From Caulobacter sp. (GTDB taxonomy: Bacteria; Pseudomonadota; Alphaproteobacteria; Caulobacterales; Caulobacteraceae): a stretch of DNA of 62,758 nucleotides. Numbering within the stretch: the stretch's first letter is position 1; every line of letters begins with the position of its first letter. The stretch spans positions 1-62,758 of the forward strand of contig JAHBYC010000002.1 in assembly GCA_019636175.1 (NCBI GenBank). Reading direction: 5' to 3'. Under the pieces are notes generated by a model. The model saw only the letters and a list, made by a program, of their open reading frames with translations, searched no databases and was not told the DNA's origin. The translations under genes were made by a program, and so were the position numbers. Positions 41,153-54,241 of the stretch are shown here, piece by piece.

Positions 41153-41229
41153 GGCCCGGTAGCTCAGCCGGATAGAGCAGAGCTTTCCTAAAGCTAAGGT
41201 CGGGGGTTCGAGTCCCTCCCGGGCCGCCA
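41153..41229 (+). tRNA. tRNA-Arg (anticodon CCU), CCA encoded
   Basis: The acceptor stem GGCCCGG/CCGGGCC, D arm GCTC...GAGC, anticodon arm with loop TTCCTAA (anticodon CCT at 41187-41189), T arm GGGGG-TTCGAGT-CCCTC and encoded CCA at 41227-41229 all fold. The first anticodon-stem pair is G.A (position 27.43), leaving four good pairs. It decodes AGG, which is rare in this GC-rich coding style. No integrase or attachment duplication is visible next to it. Confidence 0.95.
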
Positions 41230-41253
41230 GCCATCCCCAGCGACCCACCCGGA

Positions 41254-41982
41254 TCAGTCCAGGGTGCGCAGATGGGCCAGGCTGCTTTCGACGCTGGGCC
41301 AGTAGGGCGACGGCGGGAAGTCGTGCTCGACGAAGTAGTGCTCGGCGCCGGCGACGTCGGCGGCCTGGATCAGCGCCGCGAAATCGAAGGTTCCCGAGCC
41401 GACATCGGTCATCCCGCCGTCCGGCGCCATGTCCTTGAGATGAATCAGCTTTACCCGGCCGGCCATGGTTTCGATGAAGGCCCGGGGCTCCTCGCCGCCC
41501 TTCTTCAGCCAGTAGACATCCAGCTCGAAGTCGACGAAATCCGGGTCGGTCTCGGCGACCAGCCTGTCGAACGGCCGGACGCCGTCGGCAGCCTCGAACT
41601 CGAAGTCGTGGTGGTGATAGGCGAGACGCAGACCCTGGCCCCGCGCCTGACGGGCGAAGGCGTTCAGGGTCGCGATCACGGCCGGCCAGTCCCTCTGATC
41701 GGGCATGACATAGGGCATGACCAGGTAGCGACAGCCAAGGGCCCCGGCCATCTCCAGCACCGCATCCGGCTTGTCGGCGATGTCGGCCAGGCCGACGTGA
41801 GCCGAGGGACAGTCGAGGCCGATCTCCCCCATGCAGGCGGCCCAGCCGGCGAAGTCTGACCCCAGCGGGGCGGCGAACTCCACCGCGTCGTAGCCGGTCT
41901 GGCGGATGCGCTCCAGCGTGCCCAGCGGGTCGGCGGCAAAGGGTTTGCGCAGGGTGTAGAGTTGAAGGCCGATCGGTCTCAT
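41254..41982 (-). CDS. Sugar phosphate isomerase/epimerase-like TIM barrel (last gene of operon)
   Basis: 242 residues of the xylose-isomerase-like/AP endonuclease 2 superfamily. Marks: PIGLQLYTLRKPFAADPLGT at the first strand, the metal-site region LAYHHHDFEFEAADGVRPFD, VDFELDVYWLKKGGEEPRAF, KLIHLKDMAPDGGMTDVGSG and YFVEHDFPPSPYWPSVE near the C-terminus. These Glu/Asp/His clusters bind a divalent metal. Its start is only 4 bases after the GMC oxidoreductase stop, so it is the fifth gene of the operon. In related systems such barrels act on 3-keto sugars or glycosides; the exact reaction here is inference. Confidence 0.85.
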   Translation of the reverse strand: MRPIGLQLYTLRKPFAADPLGTLERIRQTGYDAVEFAAPLGSDFAGWAACMGEIGLDCPSAHVGLADIADKPDAVLEMAGALGCRYLVMPYVMPDQRDWPAVIATLNAFARQARGQGLRLAYHHHDFEFEAADGVRPFDRLVAETDPDFVDFELDVYWLKKGGEEPRAFIETMAGRVKLIHLKDMAPDGGMTDVGSGTFDFAALIQAADVAGAEHYFVEHDFPPSPYWPSVESSLAHLRTLD

Positions 41983-41986
41983 GGGG

Positions 41987-43675
41987 CTAGAGGCCTCCCT
42001 GTTGCAGCAGATCCGCCGCGTGGTTCGCCGCCCGGGCGGAAAGGGCCATGTAGGTCAGCGAGGGGTTCATCGAGGCGCTGGAGGTCATCGCCGCGCCGTC
42101 GGAAATGAAAAGGTTGGGAACCTCGTGGGCCTGGCCCCAGCCGTTGAGCACCGAGGTCGCCGGATCACGACCCATGCGGGCGGTTCCCATCTCATGGATG
42201 CGGTCGCCGGGCGGGGTCAGCTGTTCGCCGGCCTCCTCCCAGGGCGTGATGTCGACACAGCCGGCCGCTTGCAGCATCTCCGAGGCGTCGCGCGCGGCGG
42301 CCCGCATCATGGCGTATTCATTGGGCCCGTGGCCGGCGTCGATGACCGGCACCGGAAGCCCCCAACTGTCCAGGCGAGCGGTCGACAGGGTCACCCGGTT
42401 GTCGGGATCGGGCAGCACCTCGCCGAAGGGCATCAGGGAGAAGTTCCAGACCGTGGCGCTGTCGCCGTCGACCGCCAGTCCGTTGACCACCGACTCCGCG
42501 CGCCGCGACCGGGCGGCGGCGCCCTGCATGCCGAAGCCGCGCAGATAGGGTTTGTCGGTCTCGGTGATGTTGGCGTAGCGCGGGACGTAGACCCCGGTGG
42601 GCCGGTCGGCCTGGTAGGGAACCTCCATGAACCCCGGCACCCTGCCGACGATGGGCTTGCTGCTGACATGGTCCATCAGGTTGCGGCCGACCTGGTCGCT
42701 GCCGTTGGCCAGGCCGCGCGGAAAGGCGTCGGATCGCGAGTTCAAGAGGATGGCCGCGGAGTTGATCGCCGAGGCGTTGAGAAACACCAGCCGCGCCTCG
42801 AAGGTCTCGCCCAGCCTGTTCTCGCGGCCGACGGTGCGCACGCCGGTGACCCGGCCCGTTGCCGGATCATGGACGACGCTGGCGACCACCCGGTCGGTCA
42901 GAACGGTGAGGTTGCCGGTCGCGCGGGCCGCCGGGAGGGTGGCGGCGAGGGTCGAGAAGTAGCTGCCGAGCGGACAGCCGTGGTGACAGCGCATGTGCTG
43001 TTCGCAGCGCTTGCGACCGACGTCCATCTGCGGCTTGGCCACCCGGCTGAGATTGGCGACCCGTCCCATGATCATCCGCCGGGTCGGGAAATCGGCCTCG
43101 ATCCGGGCCTTGGCGGCCAGCTCGACATCGTTGAAGGCGAAGGGCGGCAGGAAGTCTCCGTCGGGAAGCTGTTCCAGACCGTCATAGTCGCCGCTGATGC
43201 CGGCGAAGGCCTCGACATGGTCGTACCAGGGCTCAAGGTCTTCATAGCGGATCGGCCAGTCGACGCCGTGGCCGTCCTGCAGGTTTGAGACGAAGTCCTG
43301 CGGCGCCCAGCGATAGGACTGCCGCGCCCAGGTCAGGGAGCGTCCGCCCAGATGATAGCCGCGGATCCAGCGGTAGGGCCGGCCGGGGACGGTCTCATAG
43401 GGGTGATCGTGGTCGCTGGCCCAGAAGGCGCGGTTGGAGTTGAACAGGGCGTAGGAGACCCCGACGTGATAGGGGTAGTGCAGGTCGCGCTCTTCCTGCG
43501 GAATCTGATCATCCCTTCGGCGCAGGGTGGCGGCCAGATCGTGGCTGTAGCCAGGCCCGTGCTCCACCTCTGGACCGCGTTCCAGCAGCAGGACCTTGAG
43601 GCCCCGCTCGCAGAGCTCCTTGGCGACCCAGCCGCCGCTGATCCCGGACCCGACAACGATAGCGTCGAACATCAT
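41987..43675 (-). CDS. GMC-family FAD oxidoreductase (glycoside 3-dehydrogenase-like)
   Basis: 562 residues. The N-terminal FAD-binding motif is IVVGSGISGGWVAKELCERG with LLLERG after it. The family block YRWIRGYHLGGRSLTWARQS and the C-terminal IHEMGTARMGRDPATSVLNG and NLFISDGAAMTSSASMNPSL match the large subunit type of gluconate 2-dehydrogenase and glucoside 3-dehydrogenase. These flavoproteins oxidise a sugar hydroxyl, often C3 of a glycoside. It overlaps the upstream TIM-barrel gene by 4 bases (ATGA). The Tat-exported small subunit and cytochrome c that often accompany such enzymes are not in the operon, and there is no signal peptide here. Confidence 0.88.
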   Translation of the reverse strand: MMFDAIVVGSGISGGWVAKELCERGLKVLLLERGPEVEHGPGYSHDLAATLRRRDDQIPQEERDLHYPYHVGVSYALFNSNRAFWASDHDHPYETVPGRPYRWIRGYHLGGRSLTWARQSYRWAPQDFVSNLQDGHGVDWPIRYEDLEPWYDHVEAFAGISGDYDGLEQLPDGDFLPPFAFNDVELAAKARIEADFPTRRMIMGRVANLSRVAKPQMDVGRKRCEQHMRCHHGCPLGSYFSTLAATLPAARATGNLTVLTDRVVASVVHDPATGRVTGVRTVGRENRLGETFEARLVFLNASAINSAAILLNSRSDAFPRGLANGSDQVGRNLMDHVSSKPIVGRVPGFMEVPYQADRPTGVYVPRYANITETDKPYLRGFGMQGAAARSRRAESVVNGLAVDGDSATVWNFSLMPFGEVLPDPDNRVTLSTARLDSWGLPVPVIDAGHGPNEYAMMRAAARDASEMLQAAGCVDITPWEEAGEQLTPPGDRIHEMGTARMGRDPATSVLNGWGQAHEVPNLFISDGAAMTSSASMNPSLTYMALSARAANHAADLLQQGGL

Positions 43676-44454
43676 GCAGCCTCTGTGGATCGCGGGGGAT
43701 CGGCGAACTGGTTGATCGCCGACCGGAGCGCCGCGACGGGCTCGCCGCGCGGCACGAATTCATGGCCTACCCAGTTCTGGTAGCCCAGATGACGCAGCAG
43801 TCCGGCGATGGCCGGCCAGTTGATTTCCTGCCGGTTGTCGAGGTCGCGCCGCCCGGGCGCACCGGCGGTATGGACATGGCCGATCAGGTCGAAGTGCGCC
43901 TGGATCGTGCGGCTCAGATCGCCTTCCATCAGCTGCATGTGATAGCCGTCGTAGAGCAGCCGCAGGGCCGGGGAATCGACGCCCCGGACGATGCCGGCGC
44001 CAAAGGCGGTGCGGTCGCACTGGTGACCCGGATGGTCGACCTTGCTGTTGAGAAGCTCCAGCAGGAGCCGCACACCGGCCCCCTCCGCATGGGCGACAAC
44101 GGGGGCCAGCCCCTCGATACAGGCCGCGATCGCCGGCTCGTCGGCCCCGTCGCCAAAGCGGTCGCCGGAAAAGACGATCACCGCCTCGACGCCCCCCTCC
44201 GCCGCGGCATCGATATTGCGGCGAACCTCGTCGGTGAGGGCGGCATGCCGCGAGGGGTCGTTGAACCCCTGCTCCAGCTTGTGACCGGTCAGGGTGACCA
44301 GCGACAGTCCGGCGTCGCGGGCGAGGGGCCAGAGCGGCCGGGGCAGCATCTCGACGCCCTGGGCGCCGGCGACCGCCGCCGCCCGCAAAAGGGTCTCAGG
44401 CTCGATCTCGCGGCCGAGGGTGAAGGACCACCAGGCGAAGCTTTGCCGGATCAT
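43672..44454 (-). CDS. Hydroxypyruvate isomerase-like TIM barrel
   Basis: About 260 residues. It begins IRQSFAWWSFTLGREIEPET. The metal-site segments are LLLELLNSKVDHPGHQCDRT, LRLLYDGYHMQLMEGDLSRT and IGHVHTAGAPGRRDLDNRQE, ending in WVGHEFVPRGEPVAAL. This is the pattern of the Hyi branch of the xylose-isomerase-like superfamily. ATG at 44454 overlaps the stop of the Gfo/Idh/MocA gene (ATGA), and its own stop overlaps the GMC gene. The longer open frame to 44787 runs inside the upstream gene and is rejected. Within this operon it probably isomerises or cleaves an oxidised sugar rather than hydroxypyruvate. Confidence 0.85.
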   Translation of the reverse strand: MIRQSFAWWSFTLGREIEPETLLRAAAVAGAQGVEMLPRPLWPLARDAGLSLVTLTGHKLEQGFNDPSRHAALTDEVRRNIDAAAEGGVEAVIVFSGDRFGDGADEPAIAACIEGLAPVVAHAEGAGVRLLLELLNSKVDHPGHQCDRTAFGAGIVRGVDSPALRLLYDGYHMQLMEGDLSRTIQAHFDLIGHVHTAGAPGRRDLDNRQEINWPAIAGLLRHLGYQNWVGHEFVPRGEPVAALRSAINQFADPPRSTEAA

Positions 44455-45599
44455 GCCTGGTCCTCGCCGAGCGACATCCAGCGACCGTCCGCAGCGGCGC
44501 TGCGCACCGCCGCCTCGATGAACCTCACCCCCTCGACCCCCGCCTCGACGCCGGGCAGGCTGTCGGCGATGGCCGGGATCGGGCGCCCGGCCTTGTGGGC
44601 GGCGATAAGGTCGGCGGCGTCGGCATAGATCCGGGCGAAGCCTTCGAGATAGCCCTCGGGATGTCCGGCCGGAATTCGCGTTGCCGCCAGGGCGGCGGCG
44701 GACAGGTCGGGCCCGCCCCGCCGCAACAGCCGCGGCGCCTCGCCCAGCGGCGTGAACCTCAGCATGTCGGGATCTTCCTGCGCCCATTCGAGGCCGCCGG
44801 TTTCGCCGTAGACCCTGAGCCTCAACCCGTTGGCCGCGCCGACCGCCACCTGGCTGGCCCAGAGCTGTCCGCGCGCGCCGCCGGTCCAGCGCAGGCGCAG
44901 CTGGACGTCATCATCCAGCCGCCGTCCGGCGACGAACCGCGAGGTCTCGGCGCTGATCTGGCTGGCCGGCTCGCCGACCACGAAGGTCGCCAGATGGTAG
45001 GCGTGGGTGGCGATGTCGCCCAGGGCGCCGCCCGGCCCCGCCTGGGCGGGATCGCCGCGCCAGTCGGCCTGCTTGTTGCCCGGCAGGGCTGTGGCCAGCC
45101 AGTCCTGGGCGTATTCGGCCTGCACCACCCGGACAGCCCCGAGCGCGCCGTCGGCCACCATGGCCCGCATCTGCCGGACCATGGCGTAGCCGCTGTAGTT
45201 ATGGGTCAGGACGAAGGGGGTTCGCGTCCGCGCGACCGTCTGTTGCAGGTCCAGCGCCTCCGCCAGACCGGTCGTCAGCGGCTTGTCACAGATCACCGCG
45301 ATCCCGGCCTCGAGAAAGGCGCGCGCGGGTTCGTGGTGCAGGTGATTGGGCGTGACGATCGCCACCGCGTCGATCCGGTCGGGCCGGGCCGCCTCGTCCC
45401 GGGCCATCGACGGCCAGTCGCCGTAGCAGCGCCCGTCATCCAGCCCCAGGTTTCGACCGAAGGCCCGCGAGCGTTCGGGATCGCTGCTGAAGGCGCCGGC
45501 GACCAGGGTCCAGCGGTCATCCAGCCGTGCGGCCATGCGATGCACGCCGCCAATGAAGGCGCCCTCGCCGCCCCCGATCATGCCTAGCGACAGGCGCAT
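44451..45599 (-). CDS. Gfo/Idh/MocA family NAD(P)-dependent oxidoreductase
   Basis: 382 residues. The N-terminal Rossmann fold shows LGMIGGGEGAFIGGVHRMAA, the VAIVTPNHLHHEPARAFLEA segment and the active-site CDKPLTTGLAEALDLQQT (the usual EKP is DKP here). The C-terminal domain has the conserved GALGDIATHAYHLATFVVGE with catalytic His. Such enzymes oxidise or reduce a sugar C3 or C2 position, and members are known in oxidative deglycosylation pathways (DgpA/CarA type). It starts 1 base after the stop of the first TIM-barrel gene and overlaps the next gene by 4 bases. Confidence 0.92.
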   Translation of the reverse strand: MRLSLGMIGGGEGAFIGGVHRMAARLDDRWTLVAGAFSSDPERSRAFGRNLGLDDGRCYGDWPSMARDEAARPDRIDAVAIVTPNHLHHEPARAFLEAGIAVICDKPLTTGLAEALDLQQTVARTRTPFVLTHNYSGYAMVRQMRAMVADGALGAVRVVQAEYAQDWLATALPGNKQADWRGDPAQAGPGGALGDIATHAYHLATFVVGEPASQISAETSRFVAGRRLDDDVQLRLRWTGGARGQLWASQVAVGAANGLRLRVYGETGGLEWAQEDPDMLRFTPLGEAPRLLRRGGPDLSAAALAATRIPAGHPEGYLEGFARIYADAADLIAAHKAGRPIPAIADSLPGVEAGVEGVRFIEAAVRSAAADGRWMSLGEDQA

Positions 45600-45600
45600 G

Positions 45601-46650
45601 TCAGCGATCGAGGCCCAGCATCCGGCGGTTGGCCGCCGCGTCGACGCCGGTGGCCGCGAAATCGTCGAAGCTCTTGCCGGTCACCTTGATGATGTGATCG
45701 CGGATGAAGGGCGCGCCTTCCCGGGCGCCGTCGGCCGGATCCTTCAGCGCGCACTCCCATTCGAGCACCGCCCAGCCGTCGTAGCCGTAGCGGGCGAACT
45801 TGGAGAAGATCGCCTTGAAATCGATCTGGCCGTCGCCCGGCGAGCGGAACCGGCCCGCCCGTTCCTTCCACGGCGCGTAGCCGCTGTAGACGCCCTGCCG
45901 ACCGGTGGGTCGGAACTCGGCGTCCTTGACGTGAAACATGCGGATGCGCTCGTGATACAGATCGATGTACTCGAGGTAGTCGAGCTGCTGCAGCAGGAAG
46001 TGGCTGGGGTCGTAGAGCAGGCAGGCTCGGGGGTGGTGATCCACCCGATCCCAGAACATCTCGACCGTCGTCCCGTCGAACAGATCCTCGCTGGGATGGA
46101 TTTCGTAGCAGAGGTCGACTCCCGCCTCGTCAAAGGCGTCGAGGATCGGCCGCCAGCGCCGGCCCAGTTCGTCAAACGCCTCCTCGACCAGCCCCGCCGG
46201 TCGCTGGGGATAGGGATAGAGATAGGGCCAGGCCAGGGAGCCGGAGAAGGTGGCGTGGGCGTTCAGCCCCATGCGCCGGGACGCCCTGGCGCCCAGCATG
46301 ACCTGCTCCACCGCCCAGGCCTGACGCGCGGCCGGGTTGCCGCGCACCCGCGCCGGCGCCGCGCCGTCGAACATCTCGTCATAGGCAGGATGCACCGCGA
46401 CCAGCTGGCCCTGCATATGGGTCGACAGTTCAGAAACCTCGAGCCCGACCGCGGCCAGAACGCCCTTCACCTCGTCGCAATAGGCGTCGCTCTCGGCCGC
46501 CAGGCCCAGGTCGAACAGCCGCCGGTCCCAGGTCGGGATCTGCAGGCCCTCATAGCCGTAGTCGGCGGCCCAGCGGGCGATGGACTCGAGGCTGTTGAAC
46601 GGCGCCTCATCGCCCGCGAACTGCGCCAGGAATATCGCCGGGCCCTTCAT
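45601..46650 (-). CDS. Sugar phosphate isomerase/epimerase-like TIM barrel (first gene of operon)
   Basis: About 349 residues, longer than the other two barrels in the operon. Marks: AIFLAQFAGDEAPFNSLESI, DYGYEGLQIPTWDRRLFDL, VDLCYEIHPSEDLFDGTTVE, ACLLYDPSHFLLQQLDYLEY and IRMFHVKDAEFRPTGRQGVY, with GYDGWAVLEWECALKDPADG near the end. These carry the usual Glu/Asp/His metal ligands. The start ATG at 46650 follows GGGAGGG. It opens a five-gene operon in which all junctions overlap or are within 5 bases. The role is probably a keto-sugar isomerase/epimerase or lyase; the substrate is not known. Confidence 0.87.
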   Translation of the reverse strand: MKGPAIFLAQFAGDEAPFNSLESIARWAADYGYEGLQIPTWDRRLFDLGLAAESDAYCDEVKGVLAAVGLEVSELSTHMQGQLVAVHPAYDEMFDGAAPARVRGNPAARQAWAVEQVMLGARASRRMGLNAHATFSGSLAWPYLYPYPQRPAGLVEEAFDELGRRWRPILDAFDEAGVDLCYEIHPSEDLFDGTTVEMFWDRVDHHPRACLLYDPSHFLLQQLDYLEYIDLYHERIRMFHVKDAEFRPTGRQGVYSGYAPWKERAGRFRSPGDGQIDFKAIFSKFARYGYDGWAVLEWECALKDPADGAREGAPFIRDHIIKVTGKSFDDFAATGVDAAANRRMLGLDR

Positions 46651-46694
46651 GCATCCCTCCCTTGGCGAGCCGCCTGCATCGGGCGACCCGTTCC

Positions 46695-46706
46695 CTGTTT
46701 GAACAG
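46695..46706. promoter_or_regulatory. CTGTT-TG-AACAG dyad upstream of the sugar operon
   Basis: Imperfect 12-base palindrome, 45-56 bases before the first start codon of the five-gene operon. GCTAGC on the minus strand next to it (about 46709-46714) loosely resembles a Caulobacter -10 element. Evidence is weak but this is the only dyad in the operon's upstream gap (46651-46768). Confidence 0.3.
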
Positions 46707-46768
46707 AAGCTAGCATGGGCCGGCCCGTTGGCGAGCGGCCGCCAGAGGTTTTTGTCGGCGCCTGACCG

Positions 46769-47641
46769 TCAGCCGTTCGGCGCCAGTCCGCCGACCGGGA
46801 AGACCGGCTCGTCGAGACCTTGCAGGGCGGGGCTGGCGTCGGCCTGATCGAAGCCGCTCATGATCCGCGCGAACCGCTCCTGCACGGCGACCCGCATGCC
46901 GGGATGGGTGAAGATGTAGCGTTCGTTGTTGCGGATCGCCTCAAGCACGCGAAGCCCGACCCGGTCGGGATCGATGCCGTTCTGGACAAATTCCGACGCC
47001 ACCAGATTTTCCGGCGAGTCCGGCCCGCCGAATTCGTCGGTTCGATTTCGCCGGCTGCGGTCAATGTTGGTTTTCACGAACCCGGGACACAGCACACCGA
47101 CGCCGATATTGTCCGCCGCCAGCTGCCCGGCCCAACCCTCGGACAGGGCGACCACCGCGAACTTGCTGGCGTTGTAGGGCTCCATCCCCGGCGGCGAGAG
47201 CATGCCGGCCATCGAGGCGGTGTTGACCACATAGCCCCCTTCGCCATGGGCGCGCAGATGCGGCAGGAAGGTCTCCATGCCGTAGACCACCCCCATCAGG
47301 TTGACCCGCATCACCCAGTCCCAGTCGGACGCGGCGACCTGGTCGATGGGGCCGCCGGCGCCGACCCCGGCGTTGTTGCAGAGCACATGGACCTTGCCGA
47401 AGGTCTCGATGGTCTTGTCCGCCGCCGTCTGCAGGGCCGCGCGATGGGCGACGTCGCAGAGCACGCCGGCGGCGCGGATTTGCCGTTCCTCCAGGCTCCT
47501 GACCGCCTCGGCCAGGGCCATCTCCTCGATGTCGGCCAGCATCACCGACATGCCCGCCGCACCGAACGCACGGGCCATGGCCAGGCCGATGCCGCTGGCG
47601 CCGCCGGTGATGAAGGCGGTCTTGCCGCTGACGTCCTGCAT
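46769..47641 (-). CDS. SDR-family NAD(P)-dependent oxidoreductase
   Basis: 290 residues of the classical short-chain dehydrogenase type. TGxxxGxG is in TAFITGGASGIGLAMARAFG, NNAG in HVLCNNAGVGAGGPIDQVAA, catalytic Ser in VVNTASMAGMLSPPGMEPYN and YxxxK as PYNASKFAVVA. An acidic residue after the second strand (MLADIEEMAL) suggests NAD preference. The C-terminal extension AVQERFARIMSGFDQADASP resembles SDRs found in catabolic clusters. A TATAGT element at about 47710 on the minus strand with CTGACA 15 bases before it is a possible promoter. The substrate cannot be told. Confidence 0.92.
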   Translation of the reverse strand: MQDVSGKTAFITGGASGIGLAMARAFGAAGMSVMLADIEEMALAEAVRSLEERQIRAAGVLCDVAHRAALQTAADKTIETFGKVHVLCNNAGVGAGGPIDQVAASDWDWVMRVNLMGVVYGMETFLPHLRAHGEGGYVVNTASMAGMLSPPGMEPYNASKFAVVALSEGWAGQLAADNIGVGVLCPGFVKTNIDRSRRNRTDEFGGPDSPENLVASEFVQNGIDPDRVGLRVLEAIRNNERYIFTHPGMRVAVQERFARIMSGFDQADASPALQGLDEPVFPVGGLAPNG

Positions 47642-47767
47642 GTCGTTTCCCCCTGATTTTCTGGCGACGGGCCAGCCGTTGCGGCCGCGCCTTGTGTTGT
47701 GGGGACTATACAGGGGATCAGGACCTGTCAGCGGGAAAAGCGGGCCTATCGGCTGGTCGGGGCCCCA

Positions 47768-48829
47768 CTACGCCCGCAGGGTCGCCAGCGTTACGCGTTC
47801 TGTCCTGACCACGGCCCCCGCGTCGTCATGCAGCACCATGTCGACAGCACCCGCCTGCCAGTCGATGGCGACCGAGCCGAAGTTGGCTGGATAGAAGGCC
47901 GCCCCGAGCCGCCGGGCGTCGACTGGCCCAGGAGGGGTCCGCGCCGTTTCCGGCATCGGGAAGTTCAGGGAACTTGAGGTCATTTCCGTCAAGGGATAGG
48001 GCGCGCCGTCCTCACGGCGATAGACGGCGCCGAAATGGCTGTCGCCCGAGACAATGACGACGCCGCTTGCCGCCGTGCGGCCGATCAGAGCGAGCAGGCG
48101 GTCCTGCTCGGCGGGCCAGCGCGACCAGCATTCACCCACCGCCACCTCGCTCAGAACCGGGATGGACGAGGCGAGAACGCGCAGGTCGGCCGGCTCGGAG
48201 AGCGTCTCCTCCAGCCATTGCCATTGCGTAGCGCCGAGCATGGTTTCGGAGGTGCGGAAATACCGGGTGTCGAGCACAATCAGCTGCGTGCGCCGCCCGG
48301 GCGGGCCGGCCGCGGGCCGATGATAGACGCCCGGGCGGGAACTGCGGGGATCTTCAGCGGGAATCGCCCAGACCCGCTTGAACAGGGCTTCGCTCTGCAG
48401 ACGGGCGGGGAACTCCGCGCCGGCGTCATTCATGCCGTAGTCGTGGTCGTCCCAGGTGACCAGGACCGGGGTTGTCGCGCGCAGGGCGGCAAAGGGGGCG
48501 TCGGCGGCCAACGCGGCATAGGCCTCGCGCAATTCGATCAATTCGGGCCGACCGTTCTCCTCGCTCTGGTAGACGTTGTCGCCGATGTAGAGAAAGGCGT
48601 CCGGCGCCGTGGCGCGGATGGCGGTCCAGACGCCTGCCTTCTCGAACTGCGGCACATAGCAGGAGCCGAAACCGACGCGCGTCAGGACCCTGGCTTCGTC
48701 AAGCGGCGCCGAGGGCATTGCAGGCGGCTCGGGCAGAGACCCGGCCGTGGAGGGCGCGGCGCCGGCGCGGCCCACCCGCGCGGCGGCCACGGCCGCGCCG
48801 GCGAAAAGGGCGAGTTCGCGACGGTTCAT
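47768..48829 (-). CDS. PhoD-like alkaline phosphatase family protein (Tat signal)
   Basis: 353 residues. A twin-arginine-like signal (NRRELALFAGAAVAAARVGR) points to folded export. The metallophosphatase domain shows RVGFGSCYVPQFEKAGVWTA, FLYIGDNVYQSEENGR, LVTWDDHDYGMNDAGAEFP and VIVSGDSHFGAVYRREDGAP, the metal-binding Asp/Asn/His set of PhoD-type enzymes. These hydrolyse phosphodiesters or monoesters in the periplasm. No pho box was recognised upstream. The gap to the next gene upstream (48830-49127) contains an inverted repeat. Confidence 0.88.
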   Translation of the reverse strand: MNRRELALFAGAAVAAARVGRAGAAPSTAGSLPEPPAMPSAPLDEARVLTRVGFGSCYVPQFEKAGVWTAIRATAPDAFLYIGDNVYQSEENGRPELIELREAYAALAADAPFAALRATTPVLVTWDDHDYGMNDAGAEFPARLQSEALFKRVWAIPAEDPRSSRPGVYHRPAAGPPGRRTQLIVLDTRYFRTSETMLGATQWQWLEETLSEPADLRVLASSIPVLSEVAVGECWSRWPAEQDRLLALIGRTAASGVVIVSGDSHFGAVYRREDGAPYPLTEMTSSSLNFPMPETARTPPGPVDARRLGAAFYPANFGSVAIDWQAGAVDMVLHDDAGAVVRTERVTLATLRA

Positions 48830-49127: not shown

Positions 49128-49805
49128 CTAATCATCAAAGCCGACGAACACCGCGGCCTCGTCGACCGACTTGCGCCTGGAGACCACCGCGTTGGCCGGG
49201 AAGCTGTCGTCCGGCCAGCCCATGGCGATGCAGATCATGATCACCTGGTCGTCGGGAATGCCCGCATGCTCGCGAACGACCGGCGACTGCATGATGCCCT
49301 GACTGTTGATCACGCAGCCCAGGCCCCGCGACCAGGCCGCGTTGACCAGGGCGTTGGCCACCGCCCCGCAATCGAAGGGGGCGATGTCGCCGCCGTGGAT
49401 CGCGCGGTCGTAGGTGACGACCACCGAAACCGGCGCGTCGAACTGTCGAAAGCCGCGCAGAACCCAGTCGAGCCGGGCCTCCTTGTCATGGCGCTCGATG
49501 CCCATGGCGCCGAACAGCTGCTTGGCGATCTCGATCTGCCGCTCGCGGTGGGGACCGGCGTATTCCCCGTGACTGCGGAATTCACGCGAGGACGGAACGC
49601 CCGCAAGATTGCGTTCGGTGTTGCCGGCGCGGATGCGATCCAGCGGCTCGCCGGCGACGACATAGAAGTTCCAGGGCTGGGTGTTCAGCGAGGACGGCGC
49701 CCGCATGGCCAGCTCAATGACGTCCTTGATCAGGGCCCTGGGCACCGGTTCGGGCTTGAAGCCGCGAATGCTGCGGCGTCCTTTGACGACATCGTCGAAC
49801 TTCAT
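49128..49805 (-). CDS. Nitroreductase family protein
   Basis: 225 residues, FMN-dependent NAD(P)H oxidoreductase fold. FMN-binding RRSIRGFKPEPVPRALIKDV and MRAPSSLNTQPWNFYVVAGE at the N-terminus, and GLGCVINSQGIMQSPVVREH plus VIMICIAMGWPDDSFPANAV towards the C-terminus, match the family. The substrate may be a nitroaromatic, quinone or enone. It is preceded on the same strand, 58 bases upstream, by a DsrE-like gene. Confidence 0.92.
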   Translation of the reverse strand: MKFDDVVKGRRSIRGFKPEPVPRALIKDVIELAMRAPSSLNTQPWNFYVVAGEPLDRIRAGNTERNLAGVPSSREFRSHGEYAGPHRERQIEIAKQLFGAMGIERHDKEARLDWVLRGFRQFDAPVSVVVTYDRAIHGGDIAPFDCGAVANALVNAAWSRGLGCVINSQGIMQSPVVREHAGIPDDQVIMICIAMGWPDDSFPANAVVSRRKSVDEAAVFVGFDD

Positions 49806-49863
49806 GGTCGGGCTGCTCCTCGCCGCCTGGATGGGATGGAATACAGGGGGGCTATCGCGACCC

Positions 49864-50397
49864 CTAGAACGGGTTGAGGGTGTAGCCTTCCTGCTGCAGC
49901 AGGGCGTGGGCGGTCATCGCCGACAGGGCCAGATGGACGCCCGGCAACAGGTCGTCCTTGTCGATGCCGAAGGCCGCCGCGCTCTGGCCGCAGACGTAGA
50001 TCCGCACCCCGTGAGCCACCAGCGCCGCGACCAGACCGGCGTTGGGATTGGTCTTGCCCTCCTCCGGCTTGAGCAGGTCGCGAACGGCGGGACCGTGGAC
50101 GACGATGGCCAGCTGGATGTTCTCTTCCGGCACGCCGGCCGCGACCTGCAGGTTGATGAAACGGGCGGCCGATTCCACGCCCTTGTTCAGGGCGCCGTCC
50201 TCGGCGCCCTTGGAGACATCGAAGGCGATCTTGAACTCGACGCCTTCGGGCAGGGGATCGGCGCCGGGGACCGGGGCGATCTGGCCATAGTCGGGGATGG
50301 CCGTGCCGGGACCAAAGCGGCTCATGTCCTGGGCGGCGGCGGGGATGGCGATCAGGGCCAGGGCCGCGACCAGCGGCAGGGGACGAAACAGGGACAT
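49864..50397 (-). CDS. Exported DsrE-family protein
   Basis: About 177 residues. A signal peptide (LFRPLPLVAALALIAIPAAA) is followed by a DsrE-like domain: VEFKIAFDVSKGAEDGALNK, IQLAIVVHGPAVRDLL and the Cys-bearing VRIYVCGQSAAAFGIDKDDL, ending in a helix with HALLQQEGY. DsrE proteins carry or sense sulfur on a conserved Cys; the periplasmic versions have no assigned role. The ATG at 50397 starts the signal; the frame is open to 50439. The gene precedes the nitroreductase on the same strand. Confidence 0.82.
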   Translation of the reverse strand: MSLFRPLPLVAALALIAIPAAAQDMSRFGPGTAIPDYGQIAPVPGADPLPEGVEFKIAFDVSKGAEDGALNKGVESAARFINLQVAAGVPEENIQLAIVVHGPAVRDLLKPEEGKTNPNAGLVAALVAHGVRIYVCGQSAAAFGIDKDDLLPGVHLALSAMTAHALLQQEGYTLNPF

Positions 50398-50496
50398 CGG
50401 CGGGCCTTTCACGGGGTTGACCTGGACATTTTGCAGCATCAGGCGGTCAGGCGAAGGGCGGAAATTCGCCTCATCGCCTGCAGCGAACCGGTTCGC

Positions 50497-51768
50497 TCAA
50501 TGACGGCTCAGTTCAGCGCGACCGACGACCATGTGGTGAACCTCGTCGGGGCCGTCGGCGAACCGCAGATGGCGGACGTCGGTGTAGAGCTCGGCCAGCG
50601 GCGTCCATTGCGAGATGCCGGTGGCGCCGTGGATCTGGATCGCCTGGTCGATGATCTCGCAGACCTTTTCCGGGACCATGGCCTTGACCATGCTGACCCA
50701 GATGCGGGCCTCGCGATTGCCCAGCACATCCATGGCCTTGGCGGCTTTCAGCACCATCAGCCGCATGGCCTCGATCTCGATCCGGGCCCGTGACACCAGT
50801 TCGAGGTTCTTGCCCAGCTGGATCAGCGGCTTGCCGAACGCCACGCGGGTGGTCGCCCGCTTGACCATCAGGTCGAGGGCCCGTTCGGCCTTGCCGATGG
50901 AGCGCATGCAGTGGTGGATGCGGCCGGGGCCCAGGCGGACCTGGGAGATTTCAAAGCCCCGGCCCTCGCCCAGCAGGATGTTCTCCTTCGGCACCCGGAC
51001 ATTGTCGAGTTTGAGATGCATGTGGCCGCGCGGCGCATGGTCGTGGCCGAACACGTGCATCGGCCCCAGGATCTGGACCCCGGGGGTGTCCATGGGGATC
51101 AGGATCTGGGACTGCTGGAATTGCGCCGGCGCGTTGGGGCTGGTCTTGACCATGCAGATCATGATCTTGCAGCGCGGGTCGCCGGCGCCGGAGATGTAAT
51201 ATTTCTCGCCGTTGATCACCCACTCGTCGCCGACCAGTTCGGCGCGCGTCTCGATGTTCTTGGCGTCCGACGAGGCCACCCCGGGCTCGGTCATCGCATA
51301 GCAGGACCGGATCTCGCCATTCAGCAGCGGGGTCAGCCAGCGGGCCTTCTGTTCCGGCGTTCCGACCCGCTCGAGGACTTCCATATTGCCGGTGTCGGGG
51401 GCCGAACAGTTGAGGCTTTCAGAGGCCAGGGGGCTCTTGCCCAGTTCGGCGGCGATGTAGGCGTAATCGAGATTGGTCATGCCCTGGCCGATCTCGGAGT
51501 CGGGCAGGAAGAAGTTCCACAGGCCGGACGCCTTGGCCTTGTCCTTGGCGGTCTGCAGGAGCTCCAGTTGGCCCGGCGCCCAGCTCCATCGATCAGTCTT
51601 GTTCTCGCCCAGGCGATAGAACTCCTCGGTGATCGGCTCGACGTTCTCGGCGATGTGCTTTTTGACCGCCTCCAGCAGGGGCTTGGCCGATTCCGACATC
51701 GCGAGATTGTTGAGCTCGGCCTCGACGTCGATCTGGGCGTCGGCGGCGACTGCGGCGGTCTGGGTCAT
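50497..51768 (-). CDS. Acyl-CoA dehydrogenase family protein (ACAD10/11-like)
   Basis: 423 residues, longer than standard because of an N-terminal extension (VAADAQIDVEAELNNLAMSE). Family marks: WNFFLPDSEIGQGMTNLDYA, CYAMTEPGVASSDAKNIETR, WVINGEKYYISGAGDPRCKI and the FAD-binding IDQAIQIHGATGISQWTPLA, ending in LRFADGPDEVHHMVVGRAEL. This is the long-chain or branched ACAD10/11-like branch. It starts 28 bases or so after the stop of the Baeyer-Villiger-type gene and is probably in one operon with it, so it may handle the acyl-CoA produced downstream of that oxidation. Confidence 0.92.
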   Translation of the reverse strand: MTQTAAVAADAQIDVEAELNNLAMSESAKPLLEAVKKHIAENVEPITEEFYRLGENKTDRWSWAPGQLELLQTAKDKAKASGLWNFFLPDSEIGQGMTNLDYAYIAAELGKSPLASESLNCSAPDTGNMEVLERVGTPEQKARWLTPLLNGEIRSCYAMTEPGVASSDAKNIETRAELVGDEWVINGEKYYISGAGDPRCKIMICMVKTSPNAPAQFQQSQILIPMDTPGVQILGPMHVFGHDHAPRGHMHLKLDNVRVPKENILLGEGRGFEISQVRLGPGRIHHCMRSIGKAERALDLMVKRATTRVAFGKPLIQLGKNLELVSRARIEIEAMRLMVLKAAKAMDVLGNREARIWVSMVKAMVPEKVCEIIDQAIQIHGATGISQWTPLAELYTDVRHLRFADGPDEVHHMVVGRAELSRH

Positions 51769-51800
51769 GAACGGGGTCCGGTTCTGGAGGGGAATGATGC

Positions 51801-54241
<2,441 letters not shown>

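What the first reader, a model, noticed from the sequence alone, without database searches (positions are those of the whole stretch)
41254..46650. Five-gene operon that looks like an oxidation-first sugar/glycoside pathway
A GMC flavoprotein of the glucoside 3-dehydrogenase type, a Gfo/Idh/MocA dehydrogenase and three xylose-isomerase-like TIM barrels sit in one minus-strand operon with junctions of -4, -4, +1, +1 or +4 bases. Known 3-keto glycoside pathways (DgpA/B/C-type C-glycoside cleavage, lac-type keto-sugar catabolism) use these same three families. Seen: the families and the spacing. Inferred: the gene product set first oxidises a sugar hydroxyl, then isomerises or cleaves the keto sugar. 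The combination of three barrels with one oxidase is not one I recognise as described.
Basis: partly seen in the sequence, partly recalled or inferred. Interest (0 to 1): 0.75.

Follow-up and report, generated by a model that had tools for sequence, protein, structure and literature searches.

The report
Cytoplasmic five-gene 3-keto-glucoside breakdown operon
This is a bacterial operon that most likely breaks plant-type glucosides by oxidising the sugar first and then splitting, hydrating and reducing it, a recently described route; it is unusual in that all five enzymes appear to sit inside the cell and that it carries an extra conserved enzyme whose job is not yet known.

Summary
The operon is real: five minus-strand genes, 46650-41254, junctions +1, -4, -4, +4, in the same order in 24 of 45 related loci (17 of the 24 titled as Caulobacteraceae). 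Four genes match a published pathway, the Agrobacterium route of C3 oxidation, beta-elimination, hydration and reduction (PMC10628242). B1 matches a solved 2-hydroxy-3-keto-glucal hydratase (E 9e-166). B3 keeps 8 of 8 named active-site residues of the eliminase AtOGE. Gfo/Idh and GMC fit the reductase and the glucoside 3-dehydrogenase by family. Two things I found in no paper searched. (1) Barrel B2 is a conserved extra component with an epimerase/isomerase-type E-D-H-E site and no eliminase histidine; Tat-bearing relatives sit beside GMC and its small subunit elsewhere. (2) This operon type lacks the Tat small subunit (0 of 30 loci, against 34 of 35 other GMC loci) and signal peptides, so oxidation and cleavage probably moved into the cytoplasm. 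Electron acceptor, substrate and B2's reaction are open. It works like the known pathway: a new variant.

The parts
45601..46650 (-). B1: 2-hydroxy-3-keto-glucal hydratase (HYD), 349 aa; keeps Glu183-x-His185 of the E-x-H stretch
   Evidence: 8ro4_A E 8.9e-166 over residues 1-347; AP_endonuc_2; motif positions
44451..45599 (-). Gfo/Idh/MocA oxidoreductase, 382 aa; proposed 3-keto-glucose reductase
   Evidence: PDB 3v5n E 1.5e-124 (named only 'Oxidoreductase'); a Gfo gene lies within about 1 kb of HYD in 26 of 27 other HYD places of the class sample
43672..44454 (-). B2: extra TIM barrel, 260 aa, aligned ligands Glu133, Asp169, His195, Glu232; proposed keto-sugar epimerase/isomerase; no signal peptide seen
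   Evidence: relatives with Tat-like signal beside GMC in other bacteria
41987..43675 (-). GMC flavoprotein, 562 aa, FDH/glucoside 3-dehydrogenase large-subunit type; Cys224, Cys230, Cys234 align with a Cys stretch of FDH; no small-subunit gene
   Evidence: no PF13618 in own genome
41254..41982 (-). B3: O-glycoside beta-eliminase (OGE), 242 aa; His123, His125, Asp155, His181, Glu219, Glu35, Glu153, His62 match AtOGE residues; no signal peptide seen
   Evidence: 8bvk_A E 1.3e-26; residues named in PMC10628242 section 8; positions

Best explanation
The operon encodes a version of the known non-hydrolytic glucoside pathway that runs wholly in the cytoplasm. An imported glucoside is oxidised at C3 by the GMC dehydrogenase. 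B3 splits the 3-keto-glucoside by metal-assisted beta-elimination into aglycone and 2-hydroxy-3-keto-glucal, B1 adds water to give 3-keto-glucose, and the Gfo/Idh enzyme reduces this to glucose. B2 most likely epimerises or isomerises the 3-keto sugar before cleavage, which would let sugars other than glucose enter. Shown here: homology, active-site residues, gene order, absence of the Tat small subunit from the loci and of signal-like N-termini. Inferred: every reaction, the compartment, and B2's role.
Against: No substrate, activity or expression data. The own genome is 87% complete. The 30 loci come mostly from one bacterial family, so the loss of the small subunit may be one event. GMC keeps the Cys stretch of enzymes that (recalled) pass electrons to a membrane cytochrome facing the periplasm, which fits a cytoplasmic enzyme poorly. 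No transporter lies in the window's operon. Gfo is assigned by family and place only. One Tat-bearing B2 (L141) has no GMC within 8 kb, and L111 has none either. Distant B2 relatives lie beside other enzymes (FAD_binding_2, Zn-ADH, UxuA), so B2's family is not tied to 3-keto glucosides alone.
Confidence: 0.7

Rival explanations
1. Same four-step pathway, but GMC still works in the periplasm, exported with an unlinked or unrecognised Tat partner; only elimination and later steps are cytoplasmic.
For: GMC aligns with the FDH/GlcDH Cys stretch; those enzymes pass electrons to a membrane cytochrome (recalled). G742 has a PF13618 gene elsewhere on its contig.
Against: No PF13618 in the own genome or in 9 of 10 other C-type genomes; GMC has no signal; B2 and OGE of the same operon type lack the signal-like starts that their relatives carry.
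Confidence: 0.17
2. B2 is a second lyase, for example for alpha- or other-configured 3-keto glycosides, and stands in for the DUF1080 protein that these operons lack.
For: DUF1080 is within 5 kb of GMC in 0 of 30 C-type loci and 18 of 35 others; in other bacteria B2 sits in the signal-bearing set with OGE and DUF1080.
Against: B2 has no histidine two residues after the first metal ligand, where OGE and HYD have one; it occurs together with both OGE and DUF1080 in many loci, so it does not simply replace either.
Confidence: 0.2
3. A cyclitol (inositol-type) catabolic operon: GMC or Gfo oxidises a cyclitol, barrels dehydrate and isomerise it.
For: Weak IolE and IolG model hits; a B2 relative sits in an aminocyclitol-like cluster in Streptomyces sedi L041.
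Against: B1 and B3 match keto-glucoside enzymes far better; IolE scores 68 and 51 bits against a cut-off of 290, IolG 51 against 355.
Confidence: 0.05
4. B2 is an ordinary hydroxypyruvate or 2-oxo-tetronate isomerase carried along by chance.
Against: Hyi model score 98 bits against a cut-off of 353; Gln of E. coli Hyi and OtnI is His195 in B2; adjacency to GMC recurs across phyla.
Confidence: 0.08

Closest known systems
Agrobacterium tumefaciens GlycDH-OGE-HYD-Gfo operon (PMC10628242)
   Same: GMC dehydrogenase, Gfo/Idh reductase, eliminase and hydratase barrels; matching OGE active-site residues; B1 matches 8RO4 at E 9e-166 (that 8RO4 is AtHYD is recalled; the call gives only the molecule name)
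   Different: An additional barrel B2; no Tat small-subunit gene (the paper's GlycDH, from Rhizobium sp. GIN611, was expressed together with its TAT protein)
Caulobacter crescentus LacABC with DUF1080 (PMC9007349)
   Same: GMC large subunit; [quoted passage not shown] same bacterial family
   Different: LacABC is a three-component membrane-bound enzyme acting in the periplasm; here no PF13618 subunit, no DUF1080 beside the operon, and an added B2
Bacillus smithii levoglucosan pathway (PMC7676230; only the title and the start of its abstract seen in listings)
   Same: Oxidation, elimination, hydration, reduction by four enzymes
   Different: PMC10628242 calls it analogous in pathway but different at the individual enzyme level; our Gfo scores 99.6 bits against a 650-bit cut-off for levoglucosan dehydrogenase
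DgpA/B/C and CGE-type C-glycoside cleavage
   Same: Metal TIM barrel, oxidation then elimination
   Different: CGE has Glu at the AtOGE His132 position and a second subunit (PMC10628242); B3 has His, and no gene for such a subunit is among the five
E. coli YcjR 3-keto-D-guloside 4-epimerase
   Different: B2 is only about 21% identical and has its own conserved block NSKVDH...CD

Membership tests
Agrobacterium-type non-hydrolytic glucoside pathway | HYD-type barrel | tested here: met
   8ro4_A E 8.9e-166, residues 1-347 of 349 aligned
Agrobacterium-type non-hydrolytic glucoside pathway | OGE-type barrel with its metal ligands and catalytic His | tested here: met
   8 of 8 residues named in PMC10628242 section 8 are kept
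Agrobacterium-type non-hydrolytic glucoside pathway | Gfo/Idh/MocA gene in the operon | tested here: met
   the reductase activity itself was not testable
Agrobacterium-type non-hydrolytic glucoside pathway | GMC glucoside 3-dehydrogenase large subunit | tested here: inconclusive
   Met at family level; no GlycDH sequence was compared directly and activity is unknown
Agrobacterium-type non-hydrolytic glucoside pathway | TAT small subunit with the GMC (as for the published GlycDH) | tested here: not met
   genome 87% complete. So I say it works like this pathway and call it a variant
Agrobacterium-type non-hydrolytic glucoside pathway | The four reactions themselves | not testable with these tools
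   needs purified enzymes
LacABC + DUF1080 periplasmic pathway | LacC-type small subunit and DUF1080 near GMC | tested here: not met
   0 of 30 loci have either nearby; the own genome has one unlinked PF06439 gene
Hydroxypyruvate isomerase (for B2) | Hyi model cut-off and Hyi metal site | tested here: not met
   97.8 of 353.45 bits; His195 where E. coli Hyi and OtnI have Gln
OGE/CGE/HYD lyases (for B2) | Catalytic His two residues after the first metal ligand | tested here: not met
   B2 reads E-L-L-N; B1 E-I-H, B3 H-H-H
YcjR-type 3-keto-sugar epimerase (for B2) | E-D-H-E metal site and fold | tested here: met
   identity only about 21%, so membership is not claimed
YcjR-type 3-keto-sugar epimerase (for B2) | Epimerisation of a 3-keto glycoside | not testable with these tools
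   needs an assay

The most novel reading that the evidence does not exclude
B2 founds a new enzyme family: a 3-keto-glycoside epimerase/isomerase that follows the GMC dehydrogenase from compartment to compartment, Tat-exported with it in many bacteria and cytoplasmic here. In Caulobacteraceae the oxidation and cleavage stages moved into the cytoplasm by loss of the Tat small subunit and of the signal peptides of B2 and OGE, which requires a new cytoplasmic electron acceptor for an iron-sulfur type GMC dehydrogenase.
Probability: 0.33. Interest if true: 0.62.

Novelty: new variant of a known kind. Interest (0 to 1): 0.42.

Why it matters
It gives a compact five-gene version of a recently found alternative to glycoside hydrolases, and a test case of a pathway that seems to have changed compartment. 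It also points to one conserved, uncharacterised barrel (B2) in 3-keto-glycoside loci of several phyla, which could explain how sugars other than glucose enter the route.

Tried and rejected
Plain isomerase or inositol reading: models far below cut-offs. B2 as a lyase: lacks the catalytic His; kept as a rival. The operon as an element inserted at the neighbouring tRNA-Arg: rejected, because the nearest relative L002 shares 41185-47650, 49138-49830 and 49864-53838 with the window; it is in the relative that the tRNA region is broken next to an integrase-like gene (the integrase is named from its look, no family search was run on it). Promoter and terminator scan: 1 promoter-like and 2 terminator-like sites, close to what shuffles give (0.3 and 1.7), so of no help. 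The crude Tat pattern flagged some C-type rows through upstream extensions that lie outside the gene; these flags were discarded and start codons were looked at instead.

In one search the rows had to have a GMC of at least 650 bits with 2.5 kb on both sides; loci near contig ends fell out (for example L008, L012, L026, L033, L112), and so did L083, whose GMC reads in two pieces; L083 and L112 both have SUB3. The script put L030, L031, L034, L035, L208 under 'none' (B2 more than 1.5 kb from GMC) and L152 under 'P/other' (QSFTWW variant); I moved these six to the C type, which changes 0 of 24 into 0 of 30. Four of the 'P/other' rows (L183, L196, L197, L201) have only weak B2 scores (88-116 bits) and may be other barrels; the 34 of 35 does not depend on them being B2. 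The SUB3 model was built from, and iterated on, the same loci. The tree has long outgroup branches; the C clade needs two changes because the Chloroflexi and Trueperaceae rows are unresolved, so a single origin of C is not shown. No OGE/CGE structure is among the 50 VIA-align rows for B2, which proves nothing. Kastner et al. 2024, which I recall as the source of 8RO4, was not held and was not read; neither was the lacA paper of Arellano et al. That B2 is undescribed rests only on searches, in a library of open-licence papers.
Full report
Observation. Five minus-strand genes run from 46650 to 41254: B1, Gfo/Idh, B2, GMC, B3, with junctions +1, -4, -4, +4. Pfam confirms the families. The own genome (3.17 Mb, 91 contigs, 87% complete) gave one match to this GMC and only these three AP_endonuc_2 genes. 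The nearest named relative is Caulobacter sp. isolate RI_161 (L002, 90% identity in B2), so the window most likely comes from a Caulobacteraceae bacterium.

Conservation. Of 45 loci with a B2 relative in genome contigs, 24 carry B1-Gfo-B2-GMC-B3 in order, 2 more carry four of the five up to a contig end, 6 carry GMC-B3-B1-Gfo-B2, 4 carry only B2-GMC, and 9 are distant. Of the 24, 17 bear titles of Caulobacteraceae or its genera, 2 of Caulobacterales, 5 only of Alphaproteobacteria or Proteobacteria. In L030 a sugar transporter of the MFS_2 family follows B2, with similar genes in the same place in L031, L033, L034 and L035. In the family sample, 15 of 99 genomes have a B2 match at E 1e-25 or better; 11, the own genome included, are close (E below 1e-100) and 4 are weak, Tat-bearing relatives. 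Genes around the operon recur only in small groups of loci, at most 6 of the 25 compared.

Enzyme assignments. B1 matches PDB 8ro4, named 2-hydroxy-3-keto-glucal hydratase, at E 8.9e-166 over nearly its whole length. B3 matches 8bvk at E 1.3e-26. PMC10628242 (sections 6, 7, 8 and 14 read, plus passages) names 8BVK as AtOGE, the O-glycoside beta-eliminase, with His132, Asp163, His189, Glu233, catalytic His134, and His66, Glu39 and Glu161 in the second metal position. All eight are kept in B3, as His123, Asp155, His181, Glu219, His125, His62, Glu35 and Glu153. The same paper describes the four-enzyme Agrobacterium operon and the route: C3 oxidation, beta-elimination, water addition, reduction. 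GMC is nearest to fructose and glucose dehydrogenase large subunits among solved structures and aligns with a Cys stretch of FDH at Cys224, Cys230 and Cys234; that this stretch holds a [3Fe-4S] cluster is recalled. The Gfo/Idh gene is close to PDB 3v5n, named only 'Oxidoreductase'. A Gfo gene lies within about 1 kb of HYD in 26 of 27 other HYD places (25 other genomes) in a sample of 289 genomes of the class, the own one included.

Two compartments. In 15 such loci (with L112, without L111 and L141) B2 (15), OGE (15 copies in 14 loci), SUB3 (15) and DUF1080 (14) begin with signal-like sequences, often with twin arginines, while HYD (12) and Gfo (13) do not (judged by eye from printed N-termini, no predictor). 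In the operon type of the window B2 shows no signal-like start in the loci printed, and OGE, GMC, HYD and Gfo show none in the five of 28 loci printed nor in the window. The small subunit is within 1.5 kb of GMC in 0 of 30 C-type loci and 34 of 35 other GMC loci; the exception is L194 (six rows re-assigned by hand and the dropped rows are told under Tried and rejected). The 65 loci mix the B2-chosen set with a GMC search in 398 genomes of the phylum, 27 with a match, the own one included, so they are not a random sample. PF13618 is missing from the own genome and from 9 of 10 other genomes with C-type B2 and GMC, all at least 99% complete; the tenth, G742, which has only the B2-GMC pair, has one PF13618 gene at 1.70 Mb of its contig while B2 lies at 4.17 Mb. 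G610 and G525, relatives with GMC but no B2 match, do carry it beside GMC. The simplest reading is that the early steps moved from periplasm to cytoplasm in this lineage. Because B2 shares its compartment with GMC and OGE rather than with HYD and Gfo, it probably acts before hydration.

Limits. Nothing here is biochemical. Losing the small subunit may be a single event. Distant members of the B2 family stand beside other enzymes: GMC fused to a Gluconate_2-dh3 domain in L037 and L038, a FAD_binding_2 flavoprotein in L039 and L040 and weakly in L041, a Zn-dependent dehydrogenase in L042, UxuA in L046, an MFS transporter in L043, an amidohydrolase in L044, so the family as a whole may handle several keto sugars or keto cyclitols. 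The own genome has one unlinked PF06439 gene with a signal-like start and three full-length MFS_2 matches on other contigs, with a fourth, partial one.

Known and new. PMC9007349 (section 10 read whole, other passages seen) describes the periplasmic LacABC/DUF1080 route in Caulobacter crescentus, with a transporter, two epimerases and a reductase upstream. The window's operon is a different layout in the same bacterial family. The pathway is known; the cytoplasmic layout and B2 are what I found no description of, within the searches named under Tried and rejected.

Noticed in passing
window 41153-41229; L002:11265-12506: The operon ends 25 bases from a tRNA-Arg (cct). In the nearest relative L002 the match to the window stops inside this tRNA (41185), ARAGORN finds no tRNA there, and an integrase-like gene lies beyond, so an element seems to have entered this tRNA in the relative.
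   Followed up: partly
window 47768-48829: A PhoD-like phosphatase gene is present in the window but missing from the otherwise collinear stretch of L002.
   Followed up: no
L041:4615-10398: In Streptomyces sedi a B2 relative sits with a dehydroquinate-synthase-like gene, a DegT aminotransferase, an APH-type kinase and a possible flavoprotein, which looks like an aminocyclitol cluster.
   Followed up: no
L037:5206-7974; L038:5908-8004: In two actinobacterial genomes GMC is fused to a Gluconate_2-dh3 domain and stands beside B2.
   Followed up: partly
L107-L110: Four genomes of the window's family carry a more distant Tat-bearing barrel of this family (about 33% identity) without GMC in the short flanks held, nor in the roughly 17 kb fetched for two of them (L205, L206).
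   Followed up: no
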